From Geodermatophilus tzadiensis (lineage in GTDB: Bacteria; Actinomycetota; Actinomycetes; Mycobacteriales; Geodermatophilaceae), in the NCBI RefSeq assembly GCF_003002915.1, contig NZ_PVTG01000018.1, forward strand, positions 1 to 64,000: DNA of 64,000 nt, written 5' to 3'. Below the pieces are notes generated by a model. The model worked only from the letters and a program-made list of their open reading frames with translations. It ran no database searches and was not told the origin of the DNA. Positions within the stretch are counted from its first letter, which is position 1, and every line of letters begins with the position of its first letter. A program made the position numbers and the translations under genes. This document shows positions 39,262 to 61,896 of this stretch, piece after piece.

Positions 39262-39621
39262 TCAGCCGGGCGGCCACCCCAGGTCGCGGCCGCCCAGGAC
39301 GTGCAGGTGCAGGTGGTGCACGGTCTGGCCGGCCTGCGGGCCGGTGTTGGCCACCAGCCGGTAGCCCGGCTCGGGGCCGTCGTCGGTGGCCAGCCCCTCC
39401 TGGACGGCGACCGCGTGCGCGGCGGCCACGACGTCGGCCAGCAGCTGCGGGTCGGCGCCCACGAGCAGGCCGGCCGTCGCGTGGTGGTCCTTGGGGATGA
39501 CCAGCACGTGGGTCGGGGCCTGCGGGTTGATGTCGCGGAAGGCCAGCGTCCGATCGGTCTCGTGCACGACGTCGGCCGGGATCTCCCCGGCGACCATGCG
39601 GCAGAACAGGCAGTCGCTCAC
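39262..39621 (-). CDS. HIT-family (histidine triad) nucleotide-binding protein
   Basis: 119 residues. HIT hydrolases cleave aminoacyl- or phosphoramidate adducts of AMP. The triad reads TVHHLHLHVLGG near the C-terminus, with the middle His as nucleophile. The N-terminus CLFCRMVAGEIPADVVHE shows the two Cys typical of many bacterial members (with a possible zinc site). NPQAPTHVLVIPKDHH is the central block. GTG start. Divergent from the ABC importer; 41 bp separate it from the first candidate start of that operon. Confidence 0.95.
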   Translation of the reverse strand: MSDCLFCRMVAGEIPADVVHETDRTLAFRDINPQAPTHVLVIPKDHHATAGLLVGADPQLLADVVAAAHAVAVQEGLATDDGPEPGYRLVANTGPQAGQTVHHLHLHVLGGRDLGWPPG

Positions 39622-39696
39622 GCGCGCACCCTAGGGGGCGCCGGGGACGGCCGGAGGTCAGGATGGGTCGCCCACCACCGATCCCCTGGAGGTCCC

Positions 39697-39807
39697 GTGC
39701 CCCTCCCCCACCGACCCGGCCGGACGTAGTGGCCGCCCGTCGCGCTCTCCGGTCGGGGAGCCCCGTCGTCCCGTCCCTCTCGCGCCGCGCGTTCCTCGCC
39801 GGCCTGA
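39697..39807 (+). CDS. candidate Sec-sensing leader ORF with in-frame UAG
   Basis: GTG 39697 has GGAGG at 39688-39692. The ten codons to TAG 39727-39729 read VPLPHRPGRT and nearly all end in G or C, unlike the overlapping extension of the substrate-binding-protein frame, which uses CCA, CCT, CGT and GTA. The TAG overlaps the GTG start of the next gene (TAGTG). If UAG is read as Sec, translation continues 25 codons to TGA 39805-39807, out of frame with the transporter gene. A 7-bp hairpin with GGUC loop starts 14 nt after the TAG, and the loop begins at +22, exactly as in the AhpD-like selenoprotein of this window. I infer a leader that couples transporter translation to Sec-tRNA supply. Alternative: plain coupling leader with chance hairpin. 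Confidence 0.5.
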
Positions 39808-40655
39808 CCCTCGCCGCCGCTACCGCCTGCGGCCGCTCCTCCCCCGTCGGCCGTGGGACGGCCGCACCCGGCTCGCTCTCCATCGGCGCCATCCCCGACC
39901 AGGACCCCGAGGTCCTGCAGCGGCTCCACGGCACCGTGGCCGACTCGCTGTCGGCAGCGCTCGACCTCGACGTCACGTACACGCCGGTCACCGACTACGG
40001 CGCGGCGGTCTCCCTGTTCCGCACCGGCGACCTCGACCTCGTCTGGTTCGGCGGGCTGACCGGCGTCCAGGCCCGGTTGCAGACCCCGGGCGCCACGACG
40101 ATCGCCCAGCGTGACGTCGACACGGACTTCCACTCGGTGTTCGTCGTGCAGTCCGCCACCGGGCTCGCGCCGTCGGACGACCTGCGCCCGCTGGCCGGCC
40201 TGCGGTTCACCTACGGCGCGGAGACCTCGACGTCGGGCCGGCTGATGCCCGCGTGGTTCCTGCAGCAGGCCGGCGTCGACCCGCAGGGCTTCCCCGGCGG
40301 CCCCGGCTTCTCCGGCTCGCACGACGCCACGTTGCAGCTCGTCGCCTCGGGCAGCTACCAGGCCGGTGTGCTCAACGAGCAGGTGTGGGCCGCGCGCACC
40401 GCGGAGGGCGCGGTCGACCCGTCGGTGGTCGCCTACGCCCGGACGCCGGGCTACCACGACTACCACTGGCTGCTCGGCCCGCGCGCCGCCGACCTCGCCG
40501 GCCCGCTGCGCGACTACTTCACCGGCCTGCGCGCCGACGACCCGGACGACGCCGCCGTCCTCGACCTGTTCGGCGCCGGGTCGTTCGTGCCGGCGCGCGC
40601 CTCGGACCACGACCGGATCGAGCAGATCGGCCGCGAGCTGGGGCTGGTCACCTGA
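39729..40655 (+). CDS. ABC importer substrate-binding lipoprotein, putative selenate type
   Basis: 308 residues from GTG 39729. This start gives a standard Tat lipoprotein signal: SLSRRAFLAGLTLAAATAC with twin Arg and lipobox cysteine near residue 34. ATG 39663 (GGAGG at 39652) would add 22 atypical residues. The mature domain belongs to the PhnD-like periplasmic binding proteins; SIGAIPDQDPEVLQRLHGTV, LDLVWFGGLTGVQARLQ and RDVDTDFHSVFVVQ match, from memory, the subfamily annotated as putative selenate ABC transporter binding protein (TIGR04553 type). Phosphonate or other oxyanions remain alternatives. GTG start overlaps the leader TAG. First gene of a three-gene importer operon. Confidence 0.85.
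   Translation: MAARRALRSGSPVVPSLSRRAFLAGLTLAAATACGRSSPVGRGTAAPGSLSIGAIPDQDPEVLQRLHGTVADSLSAALDLDVTYTPVTDYGAAVSLFRTGDLDLVWFGGLTGVQARLQTPGATTIAQRDVDTDFHSVFVVQSATGLAPSDDLRPLAGLRFTYGAETSTSGRLMPAWFLQQAGVDPQGFPGGPGFSGSHDATLQLVASGSYQAGVLNEQVWAARTAEGAVDPSVVAYARTPGYHDYHWLLGPRAADLAGPLRDYFTGLRADDPDDAAVLDLFGAGSFVPARASDHDRIEQIGRELGLVT
39744..39761 (+). promoter_or_regulatory. bacterial SECIS-like hairpin in the selenium importer leader
   Basis: Stem GCUCUCC / GGGGAGC (7 bp, one G-U) closed by the tetraloop GGUC at 39751-39754. The loop starts 22 nt after TAG 39727-39729. The E. coli fdhF SECIS has a GGUC loop 18 nt after its UGA. The AhpD-like gene at 60.4 kb has GGUCGG at the same +22. SelB binds such loops in known systems. 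Confidence 0.5.
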
Positions 40656-41395
40656 GCGCCGTCCTGCGGCTGACCGGCGTGACCGTCCGCCTCGGGACGG
40701 CGACCGTGCTCGACGGCGTCGACCTCACCGTCGGCGCCGGCGAGCGGGTGGCCCTGGCCGGGGCGTCGGGTGCCGGGAAGTCGACGCTGCTGGGCGTGGT
40801 CAACGGCACCGTGCCGCCGTCGGCCGGGTCGGTGCGGGTGCTCGGGGCGGACCCGGCGGCGCTGCGCGGGGCGGCGCTGCGCCGGCTGCGCGCCCGGGTG
40901 GGCACGGTGCACCAGCACCTGGAGCTGGCCGGCGCGCTGCGGGTGGTGCACGAGGTCAACGCCGGGCGGCTGGGGTCGTGGCCGGCGCTGCGGGCGGCGT
41001 GGTCGCTGGTGCGGCCGCAGGGCGTGGCCGACGTCGTCGCCGCGCTGGCGCAGGTGGGCCTGGCCGACCGGGTGTTCGACCGCACCGACGCGCTCTCGGG
41101 TGGGCAGCGGCAGCGCGTGGCCGTCGCGCGGGTGCTCGTGCAGCAGCCCGACCTGGTGCTGGCCGACGAGCCGGCGTCCGCGCTGGACCCGGTGCTCACC
41201 GAGCGGGTGCTCGGCCTGCTCGCCGGGCCGGCGGGCCGCGGCGGCGCGCTGCTGGCCGCGCTGCACGACCCCGCGCTGGCGCTGCGGCACTGCGACCGGG
41301 TGGTGGGCCTGGCCGCCGGCCGGGTGGTCCTCGACGCCCCGGCGGCCGCGCTGACCGTCGCCGACCTCGCCGGGCTCTACGGGACGCCGGCGTGA
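40652..41395 (+). CDS. ABC importer ATPase (PhnC-like)
   Basis: 247 residues if translation starts at CTG 40652, which overlaps the preceding stop as CTGA; the first GTG in frame (40679) would remove the first beta strand (SAVLRLTGVTV). Walker A GASGAGKSTLL, signature LSGGQRQRVAVARVL, Walker B LVLADEPASALDP, and the H-loop ALLAALHDPALAL are intact. Powers the adjacent permease. The protein sequence is close to PhnC-type ATPases, in line with the PhnD-like partner. Overlaps the permease gene by GTGA. Confidence 0.92.
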   Translation: MSAVLRLTGVTVRLGTATVLDGVDLTVGAGERVALAGASGAGKSTLLGVVNGTVPPSAGSVRVLGADPAALRGAALRRLRARVGTVHQHLELAGALRVVHEVNAGRLGSWPALRAAWSLVRPQGVADVVAALAQVGLADRVFDRTDALSGGQRQRVAVARVLVQQPDLVLADEPASALDPVLTERVLGLLAGPAGRGGALLAALHDPALALRHCDRVVGLAAGRVVLDAPAAALTVADLAGLYGTPA

Positions 41396-56997: not shown

Positions 56998-58737
56998 TCA
57001 GCGCAGCCGGCGGGTGGCGTCCGGCAGCTTCTCGGTCACCCCGCGCGCGTCCAGCCACTCCATCAGCGGCACGGCCACGCGCCGAGACGTCCCCCAGGCC
57101 GAGCGGGCCTGGCTGAGGGTGAACGGCTGCGGCACCGCGAGCAGGCGCGCCCGCGCCTGCTCCTCGACCCCCGGCGCCAGGTAGACCCCCTCCGCGACGC
57201 GCACGAGCTGCCCGTCGCGCACCGCCGCGGCCAGCTCGCGCGGACCGAGCCGCGCGGCGCGCAGCTCCTCGGCGTCGGGCGCGGCGAACGGGTTCCCCGC
57301 CAGCCGGGCGCGGACGGCGTCGACCGCGCGCTGCACCGCCGGCGGGAGGCCGGCGGCGGCCACCACCACGCGTCCCCCGCGCAGCGCCAGGGGCGTGCGG
57401 ACGACGAGCCCGACCAGGTCGTCCGCGGGCAGGTCCAGCTCGCGCCGGACGAGCGCCACCGGCGGCCCCGGCTCCAGCGGGTGCGCCTGCCGGTGGGCGG
57501 CGACCAGCCCGGGCACCCGCCGCGCGAGCTCGTCGACCAGCCCGGGCGCGAGCAGCCACGGCCCGGCGCGGACGGCGTCGTCGGGCACCGGCCAGCCCAT
57601 CGCGGTGAAGTCGTCGGCGCGCACCACCCGGCGCCGTGCCAGGTCGGCGGCCGCACCGGCGGGCCCGGTGTCCTGCCCGTCCAGTTCGGCGGCGCGCTGC
57701 CGGGCCGCGCCGCGGCGGCGCAGCTCGGGCGGGGCGACGTCGCGGACGTCGGCGCCGAGCACCCGGCGGGCGCCCGGGTCGCGCAGCAGCACCCGGTCGC
57801 CCACCCGCAGCGGCAGCGGGCCGGCCAGCCGCAGCCGCACCGCCGCCCCCTCCAGCGGGCGCACCCGCACCGGCACCGCCGCCGAGCCGACGTGCAGCAC
57901 CGCCTCGGCCGGCAGCTGGTCCTCCGGCTCGCGCGCCAGCACGACGTCGACCTCGGCGGTGGACCGGAACGCGCCCGGGGTGAGCAGCGCGTCGCCGCGG
58001 GAGAGGTCCTCGACCGCGACGCCCCGCAGGTTGAGCGCCACCCGGGCGGTGGCGGACGCCCGGTCCACCGGCCGCCCCAGCGACTGCACGCCGCGCACGC
58101 CCACCTCGCGCCCGCCGAGCAGCAGCCGGTCGCCGGCGGCCACGGTCCCCGCGGCGAGCGTCCCGGTGACCACCGTGCCGGCCCCGCGGATGGGGAACGC
58201 CCGGTCGATCCACAGCCGCACGGGCGCGGCGGGGTCGGGCGCGGGCAGCCCGGCCAGCAGCGTCTCCAGGGCGGCGGCCAGCTCGGGCACACCCCGCCCG
58301 GTCGGCGCGCTGACGGCCACGCCCGGCACCGCGCCCATCGACGTCGCGGCCAGCCGCTCGGTGGCGTCGGCGAGCACCGGCGCGGGGTCGGCGAGGTCGG
58401 CCTTGGTGACGGCGAGCAGCGCGTGCCGCACGCCGAGCGCGTCGAGGACGGCGACGTGCTCGGCGGTCTGCGCCGACCAGCCGTCGTCGGCCGCCACCAC
58501 GACCAGCGCGGCCGGCACCGGGCCGACGCCGGCCAGCATGTTGCCGACGAACCGCTCGTGCCCGGGGACGTCGACGACGGCGACCACCCGGCCCGAGGGC
58601 AGCGTCGTCCAGGCGAAGCCGAGGTCGATGGTCAGCCCGCGGCGGCGCTCCTCCTCCCACCGGTCGGGCTCCATGCCGGTGAGCGCGCGGACCAGCGTCG
58701 ACTTGCCGTGGTCGACGTGACCGGCGGTGGCGATCAC
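56998..58737 (-). CDS. selB: selenocysteine-specific elongation factor
   Basis: 579 residues from GTG 58737, which overlaps the selA stop (GTGA). SelB brings Sec-tRNA to recoded stop codons by binding the SECIS RNA. G1 GHVDHGKST (6-14), G3 DVPGH (56-60), G4 TKAD (111-114) are all present. The C-terminal four winged-helix domains end with LMEWLDARGVTEKLPDATRR, the SECIS-reading part. E. coli SelB is 614 residues, similar. In this genome its partner tRNA has anticodon CUA, so SelB must promote UAG decoding. Followed by a strong palindromic terminator. Confidence 0.96.
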   Translation of the reverse strand: MIATAGHVDHGKSTLVRALTGMEPDRWEEERRRGLTIDLGFAWTTLPSGRVVAVVDVPGHERFVGNMLAGVGPVPAALVVVAADDGWSAQTAEHVAVLDALGVRHALLAVTKADLADPAPVLADATERLAATSMGAVPGVAVSAPTGRGVPELAAALETLLAGLPAPDPAAPVRLWIDRAFPIRGAGTVVTGTLAAGTVAAGDRLLLGGREVGVRGVQSLGRPVDRASATARVALNLRGVAVEDLSRGDALLTPGAFRSTAEVDVVLAREPEDQLPAEAVLHVGSAAVPVRVRPLEGAAVRLRLAGPLPLRVGDRVLLRDPGARRVLGADVRDVAPPELRRRGAARQRAAELDGQDTGPAGAAADLARRRVVRADDFTAMGWPVPDDAVRAGPWLLAPGLVDELARRVPGLVAAHRQAHPLEPGPPVALVRRELDLPADDLVGLVVRTPLALRGGRVVVAAAGLPPAVQRAVDAVRARLAGNPFAAPDAEELRAARLGPRELAAAVRDGQLVRVAEGVYLAPGVEEQARARLLAVPQPFTLSQARSAWGTSRRVAVPLMEWLDARGVTEKLPDATRRLR

Positions 58738-60044
58738 CTCCACCGGCCGGCCACCTCCAGCACCGCGGCGGCCAGGTCGCCGTCGCACGCCGGCGGCACG
58801 CTGCGCAGGTCCAGCAGCGTGCGCCCGTCGGCCACGTACCCCACGACCGGCGAGGCGCCGAGCCGCAGCGGCCCGGCGAACGGCTCGGGCAGCGAGACCG
58901 CGGCGCTGGGCAGCGGGTGCTCCGGCGCCCCACCGCCCCCGACGCGGGCCGCCGAGTCCACCGCGCGGGCGTCGACGCCGGCGGCGACCAGCCGGGCGAC
59001 CAGCGCGGCCGCCCGCGCGCGCAACCCCTCGACGTCGGCGGCGAGCATCTCCTGCACCGGCGGCAGCGGGCCGCGCAGCGTGGCCTCCAGCGCCGCGAGC
59101 GTCGTCTTGTCCACCCGCAGCGCCCGGTACAGCGGGTGCCGGCGCAGCCGCTGCACCAGCTCGGCGCGGCCCAGCACCAGCCCCGCCTGCGGGCCGCCGA
59201 GCAACTTGTCGCCGCTGGCGAGCACCAGGTCGGCGCCGTCGGCGAGCGTCGTCTGCAGGTCCGGCTCCTCGGGCAGCGCCGGGTGCGGCCGCAGCAGCCC
59301 CGAACCGACGTCGGCCACCAGCGGCACCCCGGTCCCGGCGAGCGCTCCCGCGAGCGACGCCACCGGCACCGCCCGGGTGAACCCGCGGACGACGAAGTTC
59401 GACGGGTGCACCTTGAGCACCGCGCCGGTGTCCGGGCCCAGCGCCCCCGCGTAGTCCTCGAGCGCCACCCGGTTGGTCGTCCCCACCTCGCGCAGCCGGG
59501 CACCGGTGGCCTCCAGCAGCTCGGGGATGCGGAAGCCGTCGCCGATCTCCACCAGCTCGCCGCGGGCGATGACCAGCTCGCCGCCGAGCGCGGTGGCCAC
59601 CAGCGCGAGGGCGGCCGCGCAGTTGTTCACCACGATCGCCGCCTCGGCCGCCGGCACGGCCGCCAGCAGCGCGGCCAGCGCCGCCTCCCCGCGCGGGCCG
59701 CGGCGGCCGGTGCCCAGGTCGAGCTCGACGTCGGTGGTGCCGCTGGCCGCGACGACGGCCTCGACCGCGGCCGGCGACAGCGGTGCCCGCCCGAGGTTGG
59801 TGTGCACCACGACGCCGGTGGCGTTGAGCACCGGCCGCAGGCTGCCCGCCGTCCGGGGCAGCGCGGCCAGGACGGCGGCGACGGCGTCCCCGGCGTCGAG
59901 TCGCCCGTCGCGGACCTGCTGCTGGACGGCGCGGACGGCGTCCTTGACCAGCTCGCGGCCCAGCCGGGCGCACGCGGCGGCCACCGCGGGGTCGGCGAGC
60001 AGCGTGTCGGTGCGGGGCACGGCCCGCCGCGGGTCGGCGCTCAT
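58734..60044 (-). CDS. selA: L-seryl-tRNA(Sec) selenium transferase
   Basis: 436 residues. SelA converts seryl-tRNA-Sec to selenocysteyl-tRNA-Sec, using PLP and selenophosphate. The PLP Lys is in ASGDKLLGGPQAG at about residue 280. VLNATGVVVHTNLGRAPLS, AIVVNNCAAALALVATAL, VGTTNRVALEDY and FVVRGFTRAVPV are conserved blocks. No good Shine-Dalgarno precedes ATG 60044. A 14-bp perfect palindrome sits 15-28 nt upstream. 43 nt separate it from the selenoprotein gene. Normal length. Confidence 0.96.
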   Translation of the reverse strand: MSADPRRAVPRTDTLLADPAVAAACARLGRELVKDAVRAVQQQVRDGRLDAGDAVAAVLAALPRTAGSLRPVLNATGVVVHTNLGRAPLSPAAVEAVVAASGTTDVELDLGTGRRGPRGEAALAALLAAVPAAEAAIVVNNCAAALALVATALGGELVIARGELVEIGDGFRIPELLEATGARLREVGTTNRVALEDYAGALGPDTGAVLKVHPSNFVVRGFTRAVPVASLAGALAGTGVPLVADVGSGLLRPHPALPEEPDLQTTLADGADLVLASGDKLLGGPQAGLVLGRAELVQRLRRHPLYRALRVDKTTLAALEATLRGPLPPVQEMLAADVEGLRARAAALVARLVAAGVDARAVDSAARVGGGGAPEHPLPSAAVSLPEPFAGPLRLGASPVVGYVADGRTLLDLRSVPPACDGDLAAAVLEVAGRWR

Positions 60045-60087: not shown

Positions 60088-60696
60088 TCAGCCCCCGTCC
60101 GCGCCGTCGGCGGGGAGCTGCGGGAGCCGGACCGGGCAGGAGGTGCCCAGCTGGTCCATCGTCTCGGCGTCGACGTCGGTGCGGACGGCGGCGTGGAACC
60201 GGCTGATCATCTGGTTGAGGCCGCAGGTGAAGGTGATCTCCAGGACCTGCTGCACGGTGAAGTGCTCGCGCAGCGCCGCCCACGTCGCGTCGTCGATGGG
60301 TTGCATGAGCGTGGACTTCCGGCAGAACACCACGATCGCCGCCTGGTCCGGGGTGAACAGCCCCTCGGGCAGCGGGTCGTCGAGGACGTGGGCCATCTGC
60401 TCGTCGCTGATACCGGCGCTCCGACCGAGCACCACGTGGGTGGGCGTCTAGTAGAAGCACTCGTTGGTGACGGCGGAGGTGTAGTACGCCAGCTCCCGCT
60501 GCACCGGGTCGAGGCTGTTGCGGAAGTAGGCGACCTGCCCGAGCTGGAGCACCGCCTCGAGGATGTCCGGGTGGTTGGCGATGCCGCGGTAGACGTTCAC
60601 CTCGCGCCCACGGCTCTCCCGGACCACCCCCAGCAGGGCGCGGGCCTTGGGGTCGGCGTCGGGGTCGTTCCCCGAGACCAGGGGGATGCGTGCCAC
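60088..60696 (-). CDS. AhpD-like peroxidase-type selenoprotein, Sec encoded by in-frame UAG
   Basis: 202 residues with U83 encoded by TAG at 60448-60450. GTG 60696 has GGAGG seven bases ahead. The frame reads on without change on both sides of the TAG, and the joined product matches the carboxymuconolactone decarboxylase / AhpD fold. E68, C80, U83 and H87 repeat the AhpD catalytic layout (Glu, CxxC, His with spacings 12, 3 and 4), with Sec replacing the second Cys (ECFYU then TPTH). Selenium should speed thiol-peroxide chemistry. The C-terminus has a second helix pair (EITFTCGLNQMISRFHAAV). It follows tRNA-Sec and precedes selA on the same strand. Standard callers would split it into two ORFs. 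Confidence 0.93.
60415..60433 (-). promoter_or_regulatory. bacterial SECIS element of the AhpD-like gene
   Basis: Inside the coding sequence, directly downstream of TAG: stem GGUGCUC / GAGCGCC (7 bp, one G-U) with a GGUCG loop. The GGUC starts at +22 after the UAG. Loop sequence equals that of E. coli fdhF (GGUC). The same GGUCGG at the same distance occurs in the importer leader at 39.75 kb. Confidence 0.8.
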
Positions 60697-60769: not shown

Positions 60770-60865
60770 TGGCGGAGGCGGACGGGAATCGAACCCGCCT
60801 GACCGAGCTGCTCGGCCACGTCGGCTTTAGAGGCCGCGGGGGCCACCAGGCGCCCTGACGCCTCC
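60770..60865 (-). tRNA. selC: tRNA-Sec with anticodon CUA (reads UAG)
   Basis: 96 nt including encoded CCA. Acceptor GGAGGCG pairs with CGCCTCC, discriminator G. The long variable arm GGCCGAG / CUCGGUC (7 bp) and GCGGG-UUCGAUU-CCCGU T arm are typical of tRNA-Sec. The anticodon loop is CUCUAAA between CGGC and GCCG; E. coli has CUUCAAA. C32-U33 and A37-A38 are thus kept and positions 34-36 are CUA instead of UCA. The eighth acceptor pair is a U-C mismatch. Located between selD and the selenoprotein gene. The 5' end falls seven bases past a TAGGCT -10 box. Confidence 0.92.

Positions 60866-60888: not shown

Positions 60889-61896
<1,008 letters not shown>

What the first reader, a model, noticed from the sequence alone, without database searches (positions are those of the whole stretch)
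39688..39807. Possible selenocysteine-sensing leader controlling a selenium importer
Ahead of the substrate-binding protein lies a short ORF with its own GGAGG, GC-rich third positions and an in-frame TAG that overlaps the GTG of the transporter gene (TAGTG). A 7-bp hairpin with a GGUC loop follows, with GGUCGG at +22, exactly the distance and sequence seen in the AhpD-like selenoprotein. If Sec-tRNA is scarce, ribosomes end at UAG and can restart at the overlapping GTG; if Sec-tRNA and SelB are abundant, they read through in the wrong frame to TGA 39805-39807 and skip the transporter start. This would be a direct feedback from Sec supply to selenium uptake by stop-codon recoding, which I have not seen described. 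E. coli selAB repression through a SECIS-like leader is a distant precedent.
Basis: inference. Interest (0 to 1): 0.95.

Follow-up and report, generated by a model that had tools for sequence, protein, structure and literature searches.

The report
Selenocysteine-codon switch on selenium importer gene
In soil bacteria that carry a selenocysteine tRNA with the UAG anticodon, a short leader, mostly ten codons and ending in UAG, with a hairpin of the selenocysteine-insertion shape behind it, overlaps the start of a putative selenium-importer gene at 57 of 61 loci examined; it likely lets the cell sense its selenocysteine supply and is predicted to cut importer synthesis when that supply is high.

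Summary
The leader (SD, start, UAG overlapping the transporter GTG, 7-bp hairpin with GGUC loop at +22) is found at 57 of 61 homologous loci in Geodermatophilaceae; of the 4 without it, 2 are cut by contig ends and 2 hold divergent binding proteins. In the 57 the loop never varies, the stem covaries, and the leader ORF is in frame with the UAG; it stops at UAG while the transporter genes themselves stop at UGA (56 of 56 readable). The hairpin geometry equals that of 9 of 9 UAG-containing AhpD-like genes. In three further genomes the same leader stands before an unrelated ArsP_1 permease: it is portable. Corrections: no UGA version was found (none at 8 loci outside the family), and long out-of-frame read-through cannot be general, since UGA follows UAG directly in 33 of 57. 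Best reading: SelB with Sec-tRNA competes with release factor at the leader UAG, and termination feeds reinitiation at the overlapping GTG. Translation of the leader, Sec insertion, the sign of regulation and selenium transport itself are inferred, not shown.

The parts
39659..39664 (+). -10-like element CAGGAT, probable promoter of the leader transcript; overlaps the rival start ATG 39663
   Evidence: motif NASGAT 36-60 nt before the leader start in 56 of 57 loci, mean 1.2 and at most 4 in 200 letter shuffles; promoter function inferred
39688..39692 (+). Shine-Dalgarno GGAGG of the leader ORF
   Evidence: GGAGG or AGGAG 3-10 nt before a GTG/ATG in 57 of 57
39697..39729 (+). leader ORF, GTG + 9 codons + UAG
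   Evidence: in frame with the UAG in 57 of 57; lengths 21-51 nt, all multiples of 3; start GTG or ATG
39727..39729 (+). UAG, predicted Sec codon of the leader
   Evidence: present with the hairpin in 57 of 59 loci whose upstream DNA is held (TAGTG was the anchor of that count); tRNA-Sec anticodon CUA in 56 of 57 leader genomes, none found in the 57th
39729..40655 (+). putative selenate/selenium ABC transporter substrate-binding protein, start GTG overlapping the UAG
   Evidence: TIGR04553 265 bits, cut-off 250; no ATG/GTG/TTG upstream in frame in 16 of 57 loci
39744..39761 (+). SECIS-like hairpin, 7 bp, loop GGUC at +22 from UAG
   Evidence: 397 of 399 cells paired, 3 pairs with changes on both sides; RNAalifold finds the same hairpin unaided
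39730..39807 (+). frame read if UAG is decoded as Sec, to TGA; 25 codons here
   Evidence: not conserved: next codon UGA in 33 of 57
40679..41395 (+). ABC transporter ATPase (start approximate)
   Evidence: PF00005
41392..43008 (+). ABC permease, PhnE-like, two domains
   Evidence: TIGR01097, PF00528
60774..60865 (-). tRNA-Sec, anticodon CUA
   Evidence: RF01852 65.3 bits; ARAGORN reads anticodon cta and labels it tRNA-Pyl
60088..60696 (-). AhpD-like (CMD family) selenoprotein, Sec UAG 60450-60448, GGUC at +22: reference for the hairpin geometry
58734..60044 (-). SelA
   Evidence: TIGR00474
56998..58743 (-). SelB
   Evidence: TIGR00475 272.5 bits, cut-off 242
60889..61896 (+). SelD
   Evidence: TIGR00476

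Best explanation
A conserved short ORF ends in UAG, with a hairpin of the family's Sec-codon geometry behind it and the likely GTG start of a putative selenium transporter overlapping it; the UAG is probably decoded in part by SelB with selenocysteyl-tRNA, so the leader would act as a sensor of Sec supply that is predicted to lower transporter synthesis when Sec-tRNA is plentiful. Shown: the sequence features, their conservation, the covariation, the tRNA gene with the UAG anticodon, and the reuse of the leader before an unrelated permease. Inferred: ribosomes translate the leader from its own SD. When Sec-tRNA is scarce, release factor 1 ends translation at UAG and the ribosome restarts at the overlapping GTG. 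When SelB with Sec-tRNA sits on the hairpin, which begins 15 nt into the transporter ORF, it takes the UAG from the release factor, and the engaged complex and displaced ribosome reduce restart at GTG. Because the codon after UAG is UGA in 33 of 57 loci but UGG or UGC in 24, with at least 10 changes on the tree, the effect should be exerted at the UAG and hairpin, not by the length of read-through.
For: 57 of 61 loci carry it (57 of 59 with upstream DNA held). CCGGTCGGG, not used as anchor, is invariant in the 57. 397 of 399 pair cells kept; pairing, covariation score and cells changed on both sides exceed all 500 shuffles. The leader stops at UAG in the 57, the transporter genes at UGA in 56 of 56 readable; the two loci without it show no such hairpin behind any stop codon. 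Leader ORF in frame 57 of 57, one third expected. Arg CGG and Ser TCG codons inside the hairpin are fixed, against 1 of 28 invariant Arg/Ser/Gly columns in the body. Geometry equals 9 of 9 UAG AhpD-like genes. The leader model hits 61 of 112 family genomes: the 57 it was built from, three with an ArsP_1 permease behind it (one of them with a binding protein as well), one relic. In G092 the permease stands in the same place, between the HIT gene and the RNA methyltransferase gene. Pattern scan of the genome collection (84,980 species genomes): 45 stretches, 41 in this family, 40 of them with all 7 pairs and one with 5; the 4 foreign ones have broken stems.
Against: No expression, ribosome or selenium data. 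The name of TIGR04553 is itself putative (hypoth_equivalog), and the weak NCBIfam relatives of the ArsP_1 permeases, all far below their cut-offs, are efflux proteins, so the direction of transport there is open. In 33 of 57 UGA follows UAG directly, so Sec insertion need not remove the ribosome from the GTG. GAGGA before the GTG in 37 of 57 could let GTG be initiated independently. No UGA counterpart found. Hairpin not unusually stable. In one search the number of pairs with changes on both sides (3) and of further pair types (8) is reached by 101 and 100 of 500 shuffles. TAGTG was the anchor, and the sequences are related, so invariance is not 57 independent events. Two UAG-decoding genomes have a divergent binding protein without the leader (L098, L099).
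Confidence: 0.66

Rival explanations
1. SelB roadblock: SelB with Sec-tRNA binds the hairpin and directly hinders initiation at the GTG, as recalled for the E. coli selAB leader; actual insertion of Sec at the UAG is incidental.
For: Hairpin begins 15 nt after the G of GTG in the 57 leaders; the codon after UAG is free to vary.
Against: Would not need UAG, its exact spacing, or an in-frame leader ORF, all conserved.
Confidence: 0.17
2. Ordinary translational coupling: the leader ORF simply feeds ribosomes to the transporter; UAG is just a stop and the hairpin a coding or structural coincidence.
For: Overlapping stop-start pairs are common in bacteria (general knowledge); folding energy is not exceptional.
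Against: UAG as stop where these genes otherwise end in UGA; stem covariation; in the fetched DNA the same geometry occurs elsewhere only at AhpD-like Sec codons; leader kept when the gene is swapped.
Confidence: 0.07
3. The leader is a positive switch: Sec insertion at UAG, then termination at UGA (GUGA overlap), restarts the transporter better than RF1 termination does, so import rises with Sec supply.
For: UGA directly after UAG in 33 of 57.
Against: 24 of 57 have UGG or UGC and would read on for 14-188 codons; the class changes at least 10 times on the tree, so the sign would have to flip often.
Confidence: 0.07
4. The leader encodes a functional selenopeptide of about 11 residues.
For: UAG and hairpin are of Sec-coding type; Pro-rich peptide, mostly ending Arg-Thr.
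Against: Peptide and length vary (21-51 nt); the Arg-Thr codons overlap a likely SD of the GTG in 37 of 57.
Confidence: 0.03

Closest known systems
E. coli selAB SECIS-like leader (Thanbichler and Bock 2002; recalled, the paper is not held)
   Same: SelB/Sec-tRNA thought to act on an mRNA hairpin ahead of a selenium-related gene
   Different: as recalled, a hairpin in the untranslated leader, no Sec codon in a leader ORF overlapping the start; target is Sec machinery, not transport
Leader-peptide attenuators that sense aminoacyl-tRNA (trp, his; recalled)
   Same: a short ORF whose decoding depends on one charged tRNA controls the operon
   Different: here the sensing codon is a stop codon in competition with a release factor and the output is predicted to be restart at an overlapping start, not a terminator
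prfB (RF2) programmed frameshift autoregulation (recalled)
   Same: competition between termination and recoding at a stop codon makes a feedback loop
   Different: frameshift at UGA inside the gene senses RF2; here Sec insertion at UAG would sense Sec-tRNA and SelB, and the target is uptake
bSECIS elements of Geodermatophilaceae UAG selenoprotein genes (PMC5330540, passages read)
   Same: UAG with hairpin; GGUC at +22 in 9 of 9 AhpD-like genes
   Different: those lie inside enzyme genes; this one ends a short leader

Membership tests
bacterial SECIS with UAG Sec codon | genome has tRNA-Sec reading that codon, with SelA, SelB, SelD | tested here: met
   CUA tRNA-Sec, SelA, SelB, SelD in the window; CUA in 56 of 57 leader genomes; SelA/B/D not searched in the others
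bacterial SECIS with UAG Sec codon | hairpin with GGU-type loop at fixed distance after the codon | tested here: met
   GGUC at +22 in 57 of 57, as in 9 of 9 AhpD-like genes; +19 in one variant leader (L217), the spacing of E. coli fdhF
bacterial SECIS with UAG Sec codon | Sec is inserted in vivo | not testable with these tools
   needs mass spectrometry or 75Se labelling
bacterial SECIS with UAG Sec codon | match to an Rfam family | tested here: not met
   no Rfam match at E up to 1 in 39600-39900; the AhpD-like gene of the window is not hit either at gathering thresholds, so this does not discriminate
translational attenuator / leader ORF | conserved short ORF with SD ahead of the gene | tested here: met
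   SD, start and frame in 57 of 57; translation itself not tested
translational attenuator / leader ORF | regulation depends on charged tRNA | not testable with these tools
   experiment needed
E. coli selAB-type SECIS leader | hairpin binds SelB with Sec-tRNA and represses | not testable with these tools
   binding not measured; primary paper not held
selenium transporter (TIGR04553) | score above curated cut-off | tested here: met
   265.3 against 250 bits; family name itself is putative

The most novel reading that the evidence does not exclude
A stop codon used as a nutrient sensor: bacteria measure their selenocysteine supply by whether a UAG at the end of a short leader is read as Sec or as stop, and this decides restart at the overlapping start codon of a selenium transporter. 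The cassette is portable and has been kept when the ABC transporter was replaced in place by an unrelated ArsP_1-type permease, which this marks as a new candidate selenium transporter.
Probability: 0.6. Interest if true: 0.95.

Novelty: new variant of a known kind. Interest (0 to 1): 0.9.

Why it matters
It would be a feedback loop in which genetic-code recoding itself is the sensor for the element that the recoding needs. It makes the question of how bacteria match selenium uptake to Sec synthesis directly testable with simple reporter mutants, links two putative transporter families to selenium, and gives a compact natural read-out of UAG-Sec decoding useful for code engineering. My nine paper searches (open-licence library only, several lists capped) listed no description of it; UAG-Sec decoding in this family is already in print (PMC5330540, passages).

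Tried and rejected
Start at ATG 39663: judged unlikely; it lies in a -10-like element kept in 56 of 57 loci, 16 of 57 loci have no ATG/GTG/TTG upstream in the transporter frame, and the unrelated permeases share the N-terminus coded from the same GTG.

UGA counterpart of the leader: sought at 8 loci outside the family (L100-L102, L135-L138, all above the TIGR04553 cut-off, and L140, below it; the genomes of L100-L102 have UCA tRNA-Sec; the others were not checked) and, with model R1, in 397 genomes of the order, family members included. None convincing. One 6-bp triloop match in L100 was judged chance. Of 17 genomes outside the family with a weak R1 hit (at most 33.7 bits) I looked at 10; the 10 sites, and 4 weak ones inside the family, are not leaders, except a contig-end fragment in G002 (L245). 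L246 (G139) holds a TAGTG with a 7-bp GGUC hairpin at +21, taken as chance and not examined further. In one search I printed L135 and L138 on the wrong strand; one search repeats the test on the right one. One search's scan recovers 55 of 57 leaders as positive control.

Read-through product as a real protein: rejected, since its length is 0 to 188 codons.

Other genes in this genome under the same leader: R1 found one copy (strict filters).

AhpD-like homologs: 10 of 112 genomes; one of the ten hits (L260, about 36% identity) has no UAG and was left out of the 9 of 9.

Wrong frames of mine: (fourth protein) and one search used a wrong frame of the AhpD-like gene, mended; one search used a wrong frame of the downstream gene, mended with the same outcome.

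Full report
What is there. The window holds a CUA-anticodon tRNA-Sec (60774-60865, minus), SelA, SelB and SelD, an AhpD-like gene with an in-frame UAG and, about 20 kb away, an ABC operon whose binding protein scores above the curated cut-off of TIGR04553, 'putative selenate ABC transporter substrate-binding protein'.

Comparative test. A search of 112 genomes of the family, the own one included, found the binding protein in 62; I examined the upstream DNA of 61 loci (the 62nd, in G098, was a fragment; a leader before a binding protein in the record of the same MAG is seen as L149). 57 of 61 have the in-frame TAGTG followed by the hairpin. The four others: two cut by contig ends (L082, L092), two divergent binding proteins at 54-55% identity without it (L098, L099). 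Note that TAGTG was the anchor of this count, so its invariance among the 57 is by construction; the informative numbers are 57 of 59 loci with upstream DNA, and the features not used as anchor. The organisms, by named records with the pattern, are Blastococcus, Geodermatophilus, Modestobacter and Goekera.

Conservation. CCGGTCGGG is invariant in the 57, with GGUC at +22 in each. The seven stem pairs hold in 397 of 399 cells; three pairs show changes on both sides. Percentage paired, cells changed on both sides and covariation score exceed all 500 shuffles; the number of such pairs and of pair types does not (101 and 100 of 500 reach them); sliding the partner lowers pairing to at most 58%. 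RNAalifold, given no structure, returns the same hairpin. On a tree of the binding proteins without their first 30 residues, the fewest changes are 8 for stem pair 5, 4 for pair 4, 6 for the leader start codon and 10 for the codon after UAG.

The leader is probably translated. The first ATG or GTG 3-10 nt behind an SD is in frame with the UAG in 57 of 57 (one third expected, relatedness aside); the ORF is 30 nt in 47 and 21, 24, 27, 39, 42 or 51 nt in 10, always a multiple of three. It ends in UAG, but the binding-protein genes of the same loci end in UGA in 56 of 56 that could be read. In L098 and L099 no such hairpin follows any of the three stop codons. Inside the hairpin the Arg and Ser codons of the transporter frame are fixed (CGG, TCG; the following Gly is not), while only 1 of 28 invariant Arg/Ser/Gly columns of the body uses one codon throughout; over all amino acids it is 27 of 103. 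This points to selection on the RNA.

It has Sec-codon geometry. Nine UAG-containing AhpD-like genes in the family, the own one included, have GGUC at +22 in 9 of 9. Over 3230 distinct TAG sites of the fetched loci, a pool rich in leaders, the strict geometry occurs 63 times: 58 leaders, each identified, and 5 AhpD-like Sec codons. E. coli fdhF has GGUC at +19, the spacing seen in one variant leader (L217). The anticodon CUA was read in 56 of the 57 leader genomes; in G097, a 72% complete genome, no tRNA-Sec was found.

It is portable. A covariance model of the leader (R1), built from the 57, matches 61 of 112 family genomes: the 57, and four more. In G092, G098 and G033 the leader stands before an ArsP_1 (PF03773; scanned for the first two) permease, unrelated to the binding protein; the G033 protein is 76% identical to that of G092. 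In G092 the permease lies between the HIT gene and the RNA methyltransferase gene that flank the ABC operon of the window; in G098 the same methyltransferase gene follows; in G033 neither flank is in the 3.9 kb looked at. So at least in G092 the transporter was replaced behind the leader. The permease (E up to 1e-60) occurs in 4 of 112 genomes; the fourth, G007 at 62% identity, begins at an ATG of its own and shows no leader in the 160 nt read. In G058 the ABC operon is missing between the same flanks and the leader remains as a relic. A second, 31-bit match in G079 is not a leader.

Limits of spread. An exact pattern over the genome collection (84,980 species genomes) gave 45 stretches, 41 in this family (one record is titled Bacillus sp. 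AZ43 but has the contig length of G030 of this family); 40 of the 41 have all seven pairs and one has five; the four outside have broken stems. In the order and class samples (397 and 394 genomes) the binding protein was found at eight loci outside the family, one of them below the cut-off; none has the leader, and three of those genomes have UCA tRNA-Sec.

Mechanism. The transporter most likely starts at GTG 39729, not ATG 39663: 16 of 57 loci have no other start upstream, ATG 39663 sits in a -10-like element kept in 56 of 57, and two unrelated proteins begin at the same GTG. What happens at the UAG is a contest between release factor and SelB with Sec-tRNA (inferred). The common effect should therefore lie at the UAG and the hairpin itself. 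I favour termination-reinitiation when Sec is scarce and interference when SelB is engaged, giving negative feedback; the sign is the least certain step. Against it stand the possible SD (GAGGA) before GTG in 37 of 57, the efflux names of the weak ArsP_1 relatives, and the absence of any expression data.

Relation to known systems. UAG-Sec decoding in this family is published (PMC5330540, passages), with formate dehydrogenase, UGSC-motif and AhpC selenoproteins; the passages shown do not mention a leader. E. coli selAB control by SECIS RNA is the nearest precedent, known to me from recall and from reference lists. Nine searches of the paper library listed no report of a Sec-codon leader on a selenium transporter; several lists were capped and the library lacks most subscription journals.

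Noticed in passing
L216:458-1585, L217, L218:35-1180: ArsP_1 (PF03773) permease behind the Sec leader, in place of the ABC operon in G092: a candidate new selenium-linked transporter; weak NCBIfam relatives are efflux proteins.
   Followed up: partly
G059 (L039 1173-1263; C11:15836-15927): One genome carries two tRNA-Sec genes, one with anticodon CUA and one UCA, so both UAG and UGA might be read as Sec in one cell.
   Followed up: no
genera g5, g6, g7 of the family (L040-L045, L048): tRNA-Sec with UCA in the 7 loci read and no binding protein found in these genera: the codon switch to UAG probably happened inside the family.
   Followed up: no
window 60770-60865: ARAGORN labels the CUA tRNA-Sec as tRNA-Pyl; Rfam calls it tRNA-Sec. 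A source of misannotation.
   Followed up: yes
L215 (G058): Leader with promoter-like element intact but ABC operon missing: a relic.
   Followed up: partly
G111 C52:112609-112695: second RF01852 match, 51 bits, in a UAG-decoding genome whose binding protein lacks the leader.
   Followed up: no
L255 (G009): AhpD-like frame read by the search holds one TGA besides the TAG; not examined.
   Followed up: no
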